Assembly: GCA_023257515.1 (NCBI GenBank)
Contig: JALRCA010000264.1
Location: 1 to 32,974 of the forward strand
DNA from: Aeromicrobium sp.
GTDB taxonomy: Bacteria; Actinomycetota; Actinomycetes; Propionibacteriales; Nocardioidaceae
Length of the DNA stretch: 32,974 nucleotides
Reading direction: 5' to 3'
Below are positions 27,154 to 32,974 of this stretch, piece after piece. How positions within the stretch are numbered: the first letter of the stretch is position 1; each line of letters starts with the position of its first letter. Under the pieces are notes generated by a model. It searched no databases and had not been told where the DNA came from. It saw nothing but the letters and a program-made list of their open reading frames with translations. The position numbers were made by a program, and so were the translations under genes.

Positions 27154-27205
27154 GGATGTGGCATGGTCGGGGCAGGGCTGGGAGAGCCTCAAGGGGGCAG
27201 GAACG

Positions 27206-28411
27206 ATGACACAGACCGTCGGCGACGTGACGCGGGAGATCGAGCGGTACGCCGTCCTCAGCACGCCTGCCGGTGACGAGCTGCAGGACCTGGTCGAGCT
27301 CGTGGCGCAGGTGTGCGAGGTGCCGAGCGCGGCGATCAACATCGTCACGCGCGACCAGCAGCACCAGATCGCCACGGCGGGCTTCGACCCGGCGGTGTGC
27401 CGGCGCGAGGACTCGATGTGCGCGGCGGTCATCGCCGAGCGTGAACCCGTCGTGGTGCCCGACGCCAGCATCGACGAGCGCTTCGCCGCCAACCCCTTCG
27501 TCAGCGGACCGATCGGCAACGTGCGGTTCTACGCCTCCGCGCCGCTCGTGACGCCGGACGGCACGACCCTCGGCCGACTCTGCGTCTTCGACGACCAGCC
27601 CCGCGACCTGAACGACAACCAGCGACGCGCGCTCGTGACCCTCTCGCGACAGGTCATGGACGTGCTCGAGCTGCGCTACCGCTCGCGCGAGCTGCAGCGC
27701 TCGCTCGACGAGCTGGCCGCCGCACGCGACGAGCTGCGGCGCTCCAACCATCACCTGGCCCTGTTCGCCGGGCAGGTGAGCCACGACCTGCGCAGCCCCC
27801 TGACCGCGATCCTCGCCACGACCGAGCTGCTCGCGACCGAGCCCGCCGTCGAGACCGACGCCGACCTGCACTCGATGGTCGGTCTCGTCAACCAGGCCGG
27901 CCAGCGCATGAACCGCATGATCGAGGAGATGCTGGGCTACGCGCTCGAAGGCGGGCAGCTGAGCGTCAAGGAGACCCCGCTCGAGCACGTCGTGAGCCTC
28001 GTCCTCACCGACCTGAGGCCGGCGATCGACCAGAGCAGGGCCGAGATCGTCGTGGCGGACCTGCCGGTCGTGCTCGCCGACGCCGACATGCTCTACTCCG
28101 TCGTGCTCAACCTGCTGACCAACGCGCTCAAGTTCGCGCGACCGGGCGTCGTGCCGCGCGTCGAGGTGAGTGCCGAGCGCACCGGTGACTCGTGGCGCGT
28201 GACCGTCGCCGACAACGGTGTCGGCATCCCGCCGGAGCGTCGCGCCGAGATGTTCACGCTCTACGCCCGCGCCACCGACGACGTCGAGGGTCATGGCATC
28301 GGCCTGTCGACGACCCGTCGCCTCGTCGAGGCTCATGGTGGTCGGGTCGGCGCCGACTCCTCGACCGCCGGCGGCGCCGCCGTGTGGTTCGAGCTCCCCG
28401 CCCAGGTGTGA
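27206..28411 (+). CDS. GAF-domain sensor histidine kinase
   Basis: VSHDLRSPLTAILATTELL (H-box), NLLTNALKFAR (N-box), VADNGVGIPPERR, GHGIGLSTTRRLVEAHGG; N-terminal GAF-like region. Confidence 0.93.
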   Translation: MTQTVGDVTREIERYAVLSTPAGDELQDLVELVAQVCEVPSAAINIVTRDQQHQIATAGFDPAVCRREDSMCAAVIAEREPVVVPDASIDERFAANPFVSGPIGNVRFYASAPLVTPDGTTLGRLCVFDDQPRDLNDNQRRALVTLSRQVMDVLELRYRSRELQRSLDELAAARDELRRSNHHLALFAGQVSHDLRSPLTAILATTELLATEPAVETDADLHSMVGLVNQAGQRMNRMIEEMLGYALEGGQLSVKETPLEHVVSLVLTDLRPAIDQSRAEIVVADLPVVLADADMLYSVVLNLLTNALKFARPGVVPRVEVSAERTGDSWRVTVADNGVGIPPERRAEMFTLYARATDDVEGHGIGLSTTRRLVEAHGGRVGADSSTAGGAAVWFELPAQV

Positions 28412-28438: not shown

Positions 28439-29824
28439 TCACGGTTCGGCCGATCGCGGCGACGGGACACGCCCCTGGCCCGTCGTCGCGACGGTTGCGA
28501 CGAGGGCGAGCGCCAGGAGAGCGGCGGCACCGCATCCCGCCCAGGCGATCACGAGGCGCGGGTCGGCCTCCGGGGTCACCAGGGCACCGAGTCCCGCCAC
28601 ACCGATCACCGTCCCGAGCTGACGGGCGGCGTTCAGGACTCCGCTGGCCTGGGCGAGCGCGGCGGCGGGGCTGGTGTCCAGGGTCAGGGTGATCTGCGGC
28701 GTGACGCTGAGTCCGACGCCGACGCCGAGGATGGCCAGGCCCGTCTCACGCACGTCGGTGCGGCTGATGCCGCCGATCGCCAGGACGAGGGCGCCCACGA
28801 GCGCCGTGAGCAGGCCGGTGCGCAGGAGCGCGAGCGCACCGTACCTGCGGACCAGACGCGCGCTGCCCAGGGGCAGCACGAAGATCCCGAGGGCGGAGGC
28901 CACCATGACGAGGCCGGTGTCGAACGCGCCCAGCCCGAGGCCTCGTTGCAGGAGCAGGGAGAGCACGAAGGTCAGTCCGTAGTACCCGGCGAACAGCAGC
29001 GACCCCACACCGATCGAGATCACGACGGGCGGTCGCAGGAGCGCCGGGGCGACGGCGGGGTGACCGACGTGCGTCTCGTGCCGGACCAGCAGGGCGGCGG
29101 TCGCGACGAACGTGGCCCCCGCGACGAGCACCGGGACCGAGGCCACGCTGCGCTCCGGCGCCTCGATGACCACCGTGGTGAGAGCGGCCACGGCGAGCAG
29201 CACGAGGAGGTGCCCGCCGGCACGAGTCGGCGTGGCGGATCGACGCTCGTCGCCTCGCAGCAGCAGCCCTGCGACACAGGTGACCAGCGCGACGGGGACG
29301 TTGATCCAGAAGATGGCCCGCCACCCGCCCAGCTGCACCAGCGCCCCGCCGAGGAGCGGACCGAAGGCCTGAGGACTGCCTGCGGCGGTCACGAAGACGG
29401 CCGTCGCCCGGGCCCGACGCGGGCCGTCGCCGGCGTAGGTGCGAGCGATCAGCGCCAGACACGCGGGTGCGAGGAGCGCGGCACCGACACCCTGGAGGGC
29501 CCGAGCCGCGATCAGCGTGGACAGCGACGTGGCCAGGGCACAGGCGGCCGAGAAGGCGCCGAAGACGGCGACCCCCACCGCGAACACGGCCGCCGGGCCG
29601 AACCGGTCGCCGGCCGAACCGCCGGCGACGAGCAGGGCGGCGAAGACGAGCACGTACCCGTCGACGACCCACTGCAGCCCGGAGACCGATCCCGCGAGGT
29701 CGTCGCCGATCGTCGGGAGGGCCACGTTCACGGCCGTCGTGTCGACGACCACCATCGCGTACCCCAGGCACACCGTCGCCAGCACCCAGGCCGGCGGGAG
29801 GGCGAACATCCGCTTCGTCATCAT
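28439..29824 (-). CDS. MFS transporter (DHA2-like)
   Basis: MVVVDTTAVNVALPTIGDDLAGSVSGLQWVVDGYVLVFAALLVAGGSAGDRFG. Confidence 0.92.
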   Translation of the reverse strand: MMTKRMFALPPAWVLATVCLGYAMVVVDTTAVNVALPTIGDDLAGSVSGLQWVVDGYVLVFAALLVAGGSAGDRFGPAAVFAVGVAVFGAFSAACALATSLSTLIAARALQGVGAALLAPACLALIARTYAGDGPRRARATAVFVTAAGSPQAFGPLLGGALVQLGGWRAIFWINVPVALVTCVAGLLLRGDERRSATPTRAGGHLLVLLAVAALTTVVIEAPERSVASVPVLVAGATFVATAALLVRHETHVGHPAVAPALLRPPVVISIGVGSLLFAGYYGLTFVLSLLLQRGLGLGAFDTGLVMVASALGIFVLPLGSARLVRRYGALALLRTGLLTALVGALVLAIGGISRTDVRETGLAILGVGVGLSVTPQITLTLDTSPAAALAQASGVLNAARQLGTVIGVAGLGALVTPEADPRLVIAWAGCGAAALLALALVATVATTGQGRVPSPRSAEP

Positions 29825-29833
29825 GCCTGCTCT

Positions 29834-29854
29834 AACGCTACGCTACGTAGCGTT
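29834..29854. promoter_or_regulatory. TetR-type operator palindrome in MFS/TetR divergent intergenic region
   Basis: AACGCTAC-GCTAC-GTAGCGTT; includes 14-bp perfect palindrome ACGCTACGTAGCGT (29840-29853). Confidence 0.7.
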
Positions 29855-29865
29855 GTTCCGATGGC

Positions 29866-29871
29866 TATGAT
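29866..29871 (+). promoter_or_regulatory. Putative -10 (TATGAT) for leaderless TetR mRNA
   Basis: TATGAT-N6-GTG(29878). Confidence 0.55.
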
Positions 29872-29877
29872 CGGGCC

Positions 29878-30459
29878 GTGACCCCACCCTCGACCCGTTC
29901 CGAGAGAGCGCGAGCAGCCGTCCGGGAAGCGGCGTGGGACCTCCTGCTCGACCGGGGACTCCGCGCGGTCACGATCGAGGCGATCGCCGAGCGCTCCGGA
30001 GTCGCCAAGACCACGATCTACCGTCACTGGCCCACCAAGAACGCCATCGTGCTCGACGCGCTCCGCGAACGGTTCGAGCCGACCGTCGCCTTCGGCGACA
30101 CCGGGTCGGTGCTCGGCGACCTGACCCAGCAGCTGCAGGCGGTCATCGGTCTGCTCGCCACGGAGGCCGGAGTCGCCTACCTCAGCCTGGTCGTCGAGAG
30201 CTGGTACGACCCCGACCTCGCGACCGGGCTCGTCGAGCGCTACCTCGACCGGCGTCGCACCGCCGCGATCGAGGTCGTCGAACGAGGCGTCGAACGCGGC
30301 GAGCTGTCCGCCGGGACCGACGCCGGGGTGCTGGTCGACGCGCTCTACGGCGCGCTCTACTACCGGCTGCTGGTCAGCCGGCAGCCGCTGCCCGACACCT
30401 ACGCGTCGCTGCTCGTCGCGCAGGTGCTCGATCACGATCGCTCCGGCTCTCGGGACTGA
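29878..30459 (+). CDS. TetR/AcrR family transcriptional regulator
   Basis: LLLDRGLRAVTIEAIAERSGVAKTTIYRHWPTKNAIVLDAL. Confidence 0.93.
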   Translation: MTPPSTRSERARAAVREAAWDLLLDRGLRAVTIEAIAERSGVAKTTIYRHWPTKNAIVLDALRERFEPTVAFGDTGSVLGDLTQQLQAVIGLLATEAGVAYLSLVVESWYDPDLATGLVERYLDRRRTAAIEVVERGVERGELSAGTDAGVLVDALYGALYYRLLVSRQPLPDTYASLLVAQVLDHDRSGSRD

Positions 30460-30539: not shown

Positions 30540-30581
30540 CGGGAGCTGGCGGCTCGGGGTCCTTCGCAACAGTTCCGAGAT

Positions 30582-30636
30582 GTGGATCGGGTGGAGATCT
30601 CGCGTGGATCTGCGGTGGATCGCGGCCTCATAGCGT
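30582..30636 (+). promoter_or_regulatory. Phased heptamer array plus -10 upstream of TasA-like gene
   Basis: GTGGATC at 30582, 30604, 30615 and degenerate GGAGATC at 30593 (11-bp period); TAGCGT at 30631-30636, 9 bp after the last unit. Confidence 0.6.
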
Positions 30637-30696
30637 CGGAGACATCACCTCAGACTTCCCGCACCACCCCCGAACCACACACAAGGAGCACACCTC

Positions 30697-31227
30697 ATGA
30701 ACGCCAAGAAGAAGATCCTCGTCCCCCTCGCCACCCTCGTCGCCGCCGGCGCCGTCGCCGTCGGCTCGGGCGCCACCTTCAACTCGACGACCGCCAACAC
30801 CATCAGCTCGGTCACGTCGGGCACGCTGAACCACACCAACTCCAAGGACGGCAAGGCCATCCTGAGCCTGACGAACATCAAGCCCGGCGACACCGTCAAC
30901 GGCTCGCTCACCATCACCAACACGGGCTCGCTCGCCGCCGACTTCACGCTCACCGAGACGAGCTCGACGAACGCGTTCTCCGACAACTACCTGTCGCTGA
31001 CCATCACGAACACCACCACGGGCTCGACCGTCTACACCGGCACCTTCGGCGGCCTGGTCGACGGCGCGAAGACCCCGCTCGGCACCGTCGCCCCGGGCGT
31101 CGCGAACAACTTCGTGTTCAGCGTCAAGCTCGCCGACGACGCCCCGAACAGCCAGCAGAACAAGACGGCCACCGCCGCCTACCAGTGGGACTCGGTCCAG
31201 CAGAACGCCTCGACCACCAACCAGTGA
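30697..31227 (+). CDS. TasA/CalY (camelysin)-like secreted protein
   Basis: MNAKKKILVPLATLVAAGAVAVGSGATFNSTTANTISSVTSGTLNHTNSKDGKAILSLTNIKPGDTVNGSLTITNTGSLAADFTLTE; AAGGAG upstream; followed by SipW-type peptidase. Confidence 0.85.
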   Translation: MNAKKKILVPLATLVAAGAVAVGSGATFNSTTANTISSVTSGTLNHTNSKDGKAILSLTNIKPGDTVNGSLTITNTGSLAADFTLTETSSTNAFSDNYLSLTITNTTTGSTVYTGTFGGLVDGAKTPLGTVAPGVANNFVFSVKLADDAPNSQQNKTATAAYQWDSVQQNASTTNQ

Positions 31228-31233
31228 TCCGGA

Positions 31234-31268
31234 CGGTGCCGGGACGTCAGCCTGACGTCCCGGCACCG
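31234..31268 (+). terminator. Very strong hairpin between TasA-like gene and signal peptidase gene (attenuator/terminator/stabiliser)
   Basis: CGGTGCCGGGACGTCAG-C-CTGACGTCCCGGCACCG: 17-bp perfect inverted repeat, no U-tract. Confidence 0.55.
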
Positions 31269-31311
31269 CTCGTCCCCACCAGCTCGTGACCACCAGCCAC
31301 CGGAGGACCCG

Positions 31312-31911
31312 ATGAGCCAGCACCTCGCGCCCCGCGCCCCGCGCCACCTCGGCCGGCGACTGCTCTCCTGGGCCATGACCGGCCTGCTGGTGGTCGCGAC
31401 GTTGGCGGGCCTGGCCTACCTGGCCCCGAGCCTGTTCGGCTACGACCGCTACGTCATCACGGGCGGCTCCATGACCGGCACGTACGACAAGGGCTCGATC
31501 GCCTTCGAGAAGAAGGTCCCGGTCCAGGACCTGCGGGTCGGCGACGTCATCACCTACGTGCCGCCCGCGAGCAGCGGCGTCTCGACGCTCGTCACGCACC
31601 GCATCATCACGATGAAGAAGCTCGACACCGGCGTGATGCAGTTCCGGACCAAGGGCGACGCGAATCCGGACCCCGACTCGTGGACGTTCCAGCTCGTGAG
31701 CGGCGAGCAGCCCGTCGTGCAGCATGCCGTGCCGCACCTCGGCTGGGTCTTCGTGGCCCTCGCGGACCGGGAGATCCGCATGCTCGTGGTCGGGGTGCCG
31801 GCCGGCCTGATCGCCCTGCTCAGCGCGGTCGAGCTCGTCCGGGCCCTGACGGCACGTCGTCCCGAGGCCGACCTGGCCGACGACGACCTGCCCGTCGTCC
31901 CGGTGCTGTGA
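31312..31911 (+). CDS. Signal peptidase I, SipW-type
   Basis: ITGGSMTGTYDKGSIAFEKKV (catalytic Ser), VGDVITYVPP, LVTHRIITM (His in place of Lys), FRTKGDANPDPD; N- and C-terminal TM segments. Confidence 0.9.
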   Translation: MSQHLAPRAPRHLGRRLLSWAMTGLLVVATLAGLAYLAPSLFGYDRYVITGGSMTGTYDKGSIAFEKKVPVQDLRVGDVITYVPPASSGVSTLVTHRIITMKKLDTGVMQFRTKGDANPDPDSWTFQLVSGEQPVVQHAVPHLGWVFVALADREIRMLVVGVPAGLIALLSAVELVRALTARRPEADLADDDLPVVPVL

Positions 31912-31948
31912 GCACCGCAGTCCGAACCCCGTGAACCCGACCCCGACT

Positions 31949-32003
31949 GTGGACGTCCTGTCGACGTCGCGTGGCACGTGTGTCGATCGATGAGAAATAG
32001 CGT
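31949..32003 (+). promoter_or_regulatory. Phased heptamer array plus -10 upstream of Ig-repeat gene
   Basis: GTGGACG 31949, GTCGACG 31960, GTGGCAC 31971, GTCGATC 31982 (exact 11-bp period); TAGCGT 31998-32003, 9 bp after the last unit; ATG at 32011. Confidence 0.6.
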
Positions 32004-32010
32004 GGAACCC

Positions 32011-32974
32011 ATGAAGCAGCAGCCCCGGCACAGCCTCCGCCGCCGGGCGACGTCGCGCACGCGACTCGTCCGCGCGCTGGCCGTCGTCGCGGTGCTGGCG
32101 GTGGCGGCGGTCGCCGTCACCGGGTTCTCGTCGGCCTCGTTCATCGCCTCCAGCCTCGGCTCGGCGTCGGTGAGCTCGGCCGCCGACTGGACGCCACCCA
32201 CGGTGTCCATGACGAGCCCCGGCTCCTCGGTCAGGGGAACGGCGGTCGCCCTCGCGGCGACCGCGACCGACCAGGAGTCGGGGATCGAGAGCGTCGCCAT
32301 CCAGTACCAGGCCGCGGAGGGAGCGGGCTGGGCAACGGTGTGCAACGACACCACGGCGCCCTACGGGTGCACGTGGAACACCACGTCCGTGGCGGACGGC
32401 GCGTACGACCTGCGCGCCGTCGCCACGGACAAGGCCGGCTACACCACCATCTCGTCCTCGGTCCGCACCGTCGTGGCCAACAGCGTCACCGTCGTGCTCA
32501 GCGACCCGGGCGAGGTCCTCAAGGGCACCGTGACGCTCGACTCGACGGTCTACAGCGCTGTCCTCGCCACCTCGACGACCGTGCAGTACTCACTCGCCGG
32601 CCAGAACAAGTGGACCACCGCCTGCACGAGCCTGGTCGCCACCTCCTGCACGTGGAACACCGCGTCGGTGGCGAGCGGCACCTACGACCTGCGGACCGTG
32701 GCCCTGGTCGGGCTCACCAACTACACGTCCAACGTCGTCACCGACGTCATCGTCGACAACACCGCCCCCACGGTCACGATGACCGACCCCGGCACGCCGC
32801 TCAGCGGCACGCGCACGTTCGGCGCCACCGCGAACGACGCCGACTCCGGCGTCGCCCAGGTCGTCGTGCAGTACGCGCCGAGTGGCAGCACGACGTTCCA
32901 GACGCTCTGCACGATCACGGCCGCGCCCTTCGCGTGCCGCGCCGACACGACGAGGCTCGCGAACGGCACCTACA
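32011..32974 (+). CDS. Secreted/surface protein with tandem Ig-like repeats (3' end beyond window)
   Basis: Open to window end, hence absent from ORF track: MKQQPRHSLRRRATSRTRLVRALAVVAVLAVAAVAVTGFSSASFIASSLGSASVSSAADWTPPTVSMTSPG...; repeats with CTWNTTSVADGAYDLRAVATD / CTWNTASVASGTYDLRTVALV. Confidence 0.85.
   Translation, partial: MKQQPRHSLRRRATSRTRLVRALAVVAVLAVAAVAVTGFSSASFIASSLGSASVSSAADWTPPTVSMTSPGSSVRGTAVALAATATDQESGIESVAIQYQAAEGAGWATVCNDTTAPYGCTWNTTSVADGAYDLRAVATDKAGYTTISSSVRTVVANSVTVVLSDPGEVLKGTVTLDSTVYSAVLATSTTVQYSLAGQNKWTTACTSLVATSCTWNTASVASGTYDLRTVALVGLTNYTSNVVTDVIVDNTAPTVTMTDPGTPLSGTRTFGATANDADSGVAQVVVQYAPSGSTTFQTLCTITAAPFACRADTTRLANGTY

What the first reader, a model, noticed from the sequence alone, without database searches (positions are those of the whole stretch)
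30582..32003. Two promoters in the TasA/SipW/Ig cluster share an 11-bp-phased heptamer array with identical -10 placement
Seen directly: upstream of the TasA-like gene, GTGGATC occurs at 30582, 30604, 30615 with a degenerate unit at 30593. Upstream of the Ig-repeat gene, GTGGACG/GTCGACG/GTGGCAC/GTCGATC occur at 31949/31960/31971/31982. Both arrays have an exact 11-bp period and both are followed after 9 bp by TAGCGT. The two 62-bp segments align without gaps (offset 1367; 36/62 identities by hand). Known: SARP regulators (ActII-ORF4, DnrI, AfsR) bind heptameric direct repeats at 11-bp period about 8 bp from the -10; PhoB/PhoP also use 11-bp direct repeats. Inference: one regulator that replaces -35 recognition co-controls the matrix-like protein and the Ig-repeat protein, while the peptidase follows by readthrough. 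No regulator for this lies in the window.
Basis: partly seen in the sequence, partly recalled or inferred. Interest (0 to 1): 0.68.

Follow-up and report, generated by a model that had tools for sequence, protein, structure and literature searches.

The report
Conserved 11-bp operator, matrix genes
The two repeat arrays are a real promoter switch, conserved across many soil actinobacteria, that most probably lets one two-component regulator, encoded just beyond the end of the window, turn on a biofilm-fibre-like protein together with its own operon.

Summary
It is far beyond chance. The same four-unit array with the same -10 spacing lies upstream of TasA-like and Ig-repeat genes in Aeromicrobium, Nocardioides, Knoellia, Janibacter and others. 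A profile built only from other genera, run over 59 whole genomes, gave 42 strong hits. All lie in TasA loci of the 18 Aeromicrobium genomes with TasA.

The missing regulator was found. The window is a whole contig. Its last 141 bases equal the start of contig C12, where the Ig gene ends and, 24 bp on, an OmpR/PhoB-type response regulator and a histidine kinase follow. This gene order is conserved. In three loci without TasA the array stands before the regulator operon itself. SARPs are ruled out: a complete genome with three arrays encodes none.

Best reading: the phosphorylated regulator binds head-to-tail on the array and replaces -35 contacts. It activates TasA (SipW follows) and Ig-RR-HK, its own operon. 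Binding, phosphorylation and start sites are inferred, not measured. This is a new member of the PhoB/PhoP-type tandem-operator kind; the TasA cassette with its own two-component system seems undescribed.

The parts
30572..30581 (+). conserved upstream element GTTCCGAGAT (consensus .GTtCCGAAcT) directly before the first array unit
   Evidence: conserved in TasA-type promoters
30582..30621 (+). four-unit 11-bp-phased operator of the TasA-like gene (units at 30582, 30593, 30604, 30615)
   Evidence: profile from other genera E=8.5e-13
30631..30636 (+). -10 box TAGCGT, predicted start near 30643
   Evidence: TAnnnT was required in the selection, the inner GCG is conserved without selection
30697..31227 (+). 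TasA/camelysin-like secreted protein, 176 aa
   Evidence: PF12389 E=2.6e-7; NF046066 TasA E=9.2e-7, far below cutoff; all-beta model, highest TM-score in the list 0.45 to archaeal bundling pilin 7ueg
31234..31268 (+). 16-bp-stem hairpin between TasA and SipW, no T run; possible attenuator or 3' stabiliser
31312..31911 (+). SipW-type signal peptidase I, no array of its own
   Evidence: TIGR02228 70.8 bits, cutoff 51.85
31941..31948 (+). degenerate upstream element CCCCGACT before the Ig-gene array
31949..31988 (+). four-unit 11-bp-phased operator of the Ig-repeat gene (units at 31949, 31960, 31971, 31982)
   Evidence: R1 E=0.04 (partial), R2 E=1.1e-7 (R2 contains this site)
31998..32003 (+). 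-10 box TAGCGT of the Ig-repeat gene, predicted start 32010-32011, so leaderless or nearly so
   Evidence: ATG lies 6-7 nt after the -10 box in most Aeromicrobium Ig genes
32011..32974 (+). 5' part of the Ig-repeat (Big_7) surface protein; cut by the contig end, continues on contig C12 to extended coordinate 33849; response regulator at extended 33874-34596, histidine kinase from 34589
   Evidence: PF17957 E=1.7e-19; 141-bp exact overlap of window 32834-32974 with C12:1-141
27158..28411 (+). GAF-domain histidine kinase; its homologue lies directly upstream of TasA in many relatives, here separated by an MFS/TetR pair

Best explanation
Each array is a tandem operator for one dedicated OmpR/PhoB-family response regulator. 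The regulator is encoded with its histidine kinase directly downstream of the Ig-repeat gene, just off the window. When phosphorylated, copies of the regulator bind head-to-tail to the 11-bp units. The two units next to the -10 box (about -39 to -18) take the place of a -35 element and recruit RNA polymerase. This activates TasA (with SipW by readthrough) and the Ig-RR-HK operon, so the system amplifies itself. Shown: the arrays, their conservation, their restriction to the locus within the genus, the gene order, the linkage of array and regulator with and without TasA, and the absence of a SARP in one array-bearing complete genome. Inferred: binding, phosphorylation, activation rather than repression, start sites and feedback.
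For: Array and -10 spacing are conserved in 63 non-redundant promoters (33 TasA, 30 Ig). With anchoring on TAGCGT alone, lag-11 self-identity is 0.405 and 0.398 against shuffled 0.274 and 0.286 (SD 0.013 and 0.011). Profile R1, built only from non-Aeromicrobium sequences, finds 42 hits below 1e-4 in 59 genomes, all at this locus. The regulator (E<=1e-60) is present in exactly the 18 of 37 Aeromicrobium genomes with TasA. It lies downstream of Ig on the same strand in nearly all loci. In loci without TasA the array precedes the regulator operon itself (L135, L136, weaker in L140). The regulator has receiver and winged-helix domains and a near-invariant recognition helix that differs from that of unlinked homologues L102/L103. 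Patulibacter TasA loci, which lack a close relative of this regulator, lack the array.
Against: No binding or expression data. L147/L081 (G081) keeps the array, TasA and the kinase but has lost RR, SipW and Ig. Divergent Nocardioides loci with TasA and RR show no recognisable array (L148, L149). Some Nocardioides TasA promoters and some Aeromicrobium ones (e.g. G019) have array units but no TAnnnT. The window's own Ig array is a weak member (R1 E=0.04). Co-occurrence of array and regulator is partly automatic because they are linked.
Confidence: 0.8

Rival explanations
1. A SARP (winged helix plus BTAD) elsewhere in the genome binds the heptamers, as ActII-ORF4 or AfsR do.
For: Period, near-identical distance to the -10 box and lack of a -35 fit SARP promoters (PMC10936776). 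BTAD proteins occur in G000.
Against: The complete genome G008 has three arrays and no BTAD protein. BTAD proteins also occur in genomes without arrays, and no SARP was seen linked to the locus.
Confidence: 0.03
2. The arrays are PHO-type boxes of the global phosphate regulator (PhoP/RegX3 type) or another housekeeping response regulator such as MtrA.
For: The 11-bp tandem architecture is that of PHO boxes (PMC4415409). RegX3 is the closest solved sequence to the locus regulator. Units such as GTTACC and GTGACC in some relatives resemble GTTCACC.
Against: In 37 Aeromicrobium genomes no array lies outside the locus, so a global regulator is unlikely. The unit is GTGGATC, not GTTCACC. The arrays are absent from genomes of the genus lacking the locus regulator.
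Confidence: 0.08
3. The locus regulator binds the arrays but mainly represses, blocking the promoter until its phosphorylation state changes.
For: The array covers the -35 region, where a bound protein could also block polymerase (geometry).
Against: No TTGACA-like -35 exists at either promoter (30608-30613 ATCTGC, 31975-31980 CACGTG), so the promoters look activator-dependent. The fixed 9-bp spacing to the -10 is typical of activators of this fold.
Confidence: 0.09

Closest known systems
PHO box bound by PhoB/PhoP (OmpR-family response regulators)
   Same: Tandem 11-bp direct repeats with about seven conserved and four variable bases, next to the -10 box, bound by a receiver plus winged-helix regulator.
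   Different: Unit is GTGGATC-like, not CTGTCAT or GTTCACC; four units plus an upstream CCGAA element; confined to one locus in Aeromicrobium; the regulator misses the NCBIfam PhoB cutoff (170.7 against 296.2 bits).
SARP promoters (AfsR afs box, ActII-ORF4, DnrI)
   Same: 11-bp repeats, about 8-9 bp from the -10; core box centre about -28.5 here, -29.5 in AfsR (PMC10936776).
   Different: No BTAD regulator is needed (G008 has none); the linked regulator is a two-component response regulator.
Bacillus subtilis tapA-sipW-tasA operon
   Same: TasA/camelysin-like fibre protein next to a SipW-type signal peptidase.
   Different: In Bacillus the operon is controlled by SinR (PMC9674648); here by a linked two-component system. 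The protein is far below the TasA equivalog cutoff, and an Ig-repeat protein takes part.

Membership tests
PhoB/PhoP-type tandem operator | two or more direct repeat units with 11-bp period | tested here: met
   lag-11 test on TAGCGT-anchored promoters
PhoB/PhoP-type tandem operator | cognate regulator is an OmpR-family response regulator (receiver + winged helix) | tested here: met
   PF00072 and PF00486 in the linked regulator; that it is the cognate regulator is inferred from linkage
PhoB/PhoP-type tandem operator | regulator shown to bind the repeats | not testable with these tools
   needs footprinting
Pho regulon member | PHO-box heptamer GTTCACC/CTGTCAT and a PhoB-type regulator | tested here: not met
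   consensus GTGGATC; TIGR02154 below cutoff; no arrays outside the locus
SARP operator | 11- or 22-bp repeats with last repeat about 8 bp from the -10 | tested here: met
   9 bp after the heptamer
SARP operator | regulator with BTAD domain | tested here: not met
   G008: three arrays, no BTAD
TasA biofilm matrix protein | NCBIfam NF046066 above cutoff | tested here: not met
   28.5 against 450 bits
TasA/camelysin superfamily | PF12389 above its curated cutoff | tested here: met
   31.1 against 22.5 bits
TasA/camelysin superfamily | jelly-roll fibre fold | tested here: inconclusive
   all-beta model, mean pLDDT 72.7, highest TM-score in the list 0.45 to 7ueg

The most novel reading that the evidence does not exclude
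A previously undescribed family of response regulators in Actinomycetota has its own four-unit GTGGA operator. It runs a self-amplifying switch for TasA-like surface fibres, and through paralogues in Nocardioides it also drives structured small RNAs with exposed GGGGGG loops.
Probability: 0.3. Interest if true: 0.68.

Novelty: new member of a known kind. Interest (0 to 1): 0.52.

Why it matters
It gives a concrete regulator, operator and target set for TasA-like fibre production in actinobacteria, for which literature searches found no description. It also gives a clean test of how response regulators read four-unit tandem operators and substitute for a -35 element. The motif is specific enough to find the switch by sequence alone in other genomes.

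Tried and rejected
SARP as regulator: rejected on G008. Global PhoP/MtrA-type control: disfavoured, no arrays elsewhere in Aeromicrobium. The window's TetR (29878-30459) as regulator: rejected, it is not part of the conserved gene order, and TetR proteins bind inverted repeats (own knowledge). The GAF kinases: no DNA-binding domain found. Chance or low-complexity origin: rejected by Markov nulls and conservation. Rfam found nothing credible near the arrays (miRNA hits far below gathering scores come from the TasA-SipW hairpin). Foldseek for the TasA model gave only weak matches, so its fold assignment is tentative. An early Pfam query of the Ig gene used the wrong frame and was repeated in the right one. 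Literature searches for actinobacterial TasA, SipW or camelysin with a two-component system found none.

Full report
Observation. Both have four units at 11-bp period, nine bases between the last heptamer and TAGCGT, and 36 of 62 identities at offset 1367. Random 62-mers of the window share 18.3 on average (SD 4.0). Neither promoter has a TTGACA-like -35 at a normal distance: 30608-30613 is ATCTGC and 31975-31980 is CACGTG.

Conservation. The window is a whole contig (G000:C149) of a genome whose same-genus relatives match named Aeromicrobium records. TasA-like orthologues occur in about half of the Aeromicrobium genomes and in Nocardioides, Knoellia, Janibacter, Intrasporangium, Georgenia, Serinicoccus and Ornithinimicrobium. 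The array lies upstream of the TasA-like gene, and usually also of the Ig-repeat gene, in nearly all of them. Across 63 non-redundant promoters the consensus is roughly .GTtCCGAAcT - GTGGAgnTCg. - GgGGAnnTCGt - GTGGAgatccc - GTGGATC - gcggCTCCg - TAGCGT. The array scoring was used to choose these sites, so an unbiased check was made. Anchored on the nearest TAGCGT only, self-identity at lag 11 is 0.405 (TasA, n=21) and 0.398 (Ig, n=27), against 0.274 and 0.286 in shuffles (SD 0.013, 0.011). Lag 22 is also raised (0.383, 0.377), the other lags much less or not.

Specificity. A profile (R1) from 21 sequences of other genera was run over 59 whole genomes. It gave 42 hits below E=1e-4, all in the TasA loci of 18 Aeromicrobium genomes, and none in the 19 Aeromicrobium genomes without a TasA orthologue or in 22 genomes of other families of the order. 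The window's TasA array scores E=8.5e-13. Its Ig array is a weak member (0.04 with R1, 1.1e-7 with R2, which contains it).

The regulator. Downstream of the Ig gene, on the same strand, nearly every locus encodes an OmpR-family response regulator and a histidine kinase. In the window's genome the regulator is on contig C12 at 1041-1763. The last 141 bases of the window are identical to C12:1-141, and the joined frame gives a 612-aa Ig protein whose stop codon lies 24 bp before the regulator. The regulator would thus begin at extended coordinate 33874. Within Aeromicrobium the regulator (E<=1e-60) is present in exactly the 18 genomes with TasA and in none of the others.

Array follows regulator, not TasA. 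Among 298 genomes of the order, 33 carry the array and 28 of these have TasA. In G139 and G142, which lack TasA, the array stands upstream of the operon that holds the regulator and kinase; G233 shows the same with a weaker array. Conversely, Patulibacter TasA loci, which have no close relative of this regulator, have no array. The recognition helix (ENWFGSTKTLDxTxGRLRQKL) is almost invariant in locus-linked regulators and differs in homologues of 53-54% identity from another family of the order.

Mechanism. If the -10 box is placed at -12 to -7, the last two units span about -39 to -18, centre -28.5. The AfsR box is centred at -29.5 (PMC10936776). PHO boxes are pairs of 11-nt direct repeats bound head-to-tail by PhoB (PMC4415409). 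By analogy the regulator binds in tandem, covers the -35 region and recruits polymerase; two further units and the CCGAA element would bind more copies. In most Aeromicrobium loci, and in the window, the Ig gene starts 6-7 nt after its -10 box and so is leaderless or nearly so. Because the regulator lies in the Ig operon, positive feedback is likely. SipW has no array and follows TasA after a strong hairpin, so it would be made by readthrough. These steps are inferred.

Rivals. A SARP is excluded in at least one complete genome with three arrays (G008). A global phosphate-type regulator is disfavoured because in Aeromicrobium the array is found nowhere else. Exceptions are recorded: G081 keeps the array without the regulator nearby, and divergent Nocardioides loci L148 and L149 have the regulator without a recognisable array. 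In three Nocardioides genomes (G060, G072, G304) an array-like promoter stands before an apparently non-coding stretch, in genomes that hold a 60-63% paralogue of the regulator; this lead was only partly followed.

Verdict. Real, conserved, and mechanistically of the known PhoB/PhoP-type kind. What is new is the dedicated switch for a TasA-like cassette in Actinomycetota, for which no description was found.

Noticed in passing
L138:6050-6331 (-), L139:6635-6960 (+), L137:6455-6700 (+), L151, L159: In some Nocardioides a similar array and -10 box stand before an apparently non-coding stretch of about 200-250 nt with repeated GGGGGG loops and a terminator-like hairpin (fold z-score -4.8 for L138; not in Rfam). 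These genomes have a 60-63% identical paralogue of the regulator; possibly a new small RNA under that paralogue.
   Followed up: partly
window 31234-31268: Perfect 16-bp-stem hairpin between the TasA-like gene and SipW. Stems of 7 bp or more occur after TasA in 37 of 59 loci against 31% of random 75-mers.
   Followed up: partly
window 28439-30459: An MFS transporter and a divergent TetR regulator sit between the GAF kinase and TasA, which are adjacent in many relatives: probably an insertion in this lineage.
   Followed up: no
L034:8213-12151: One genome (G034) has several near-identical tandem TasA copies, each with its own array.
   Followed up: no
L033, L135, L046 between Ig and RR: A small membrane protein of about 120-135 aa with no Pfam match (L046 copy tested) is often encoded just before the regulator; the window's genome lacks it (24-bp gap).
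   Followed up: no
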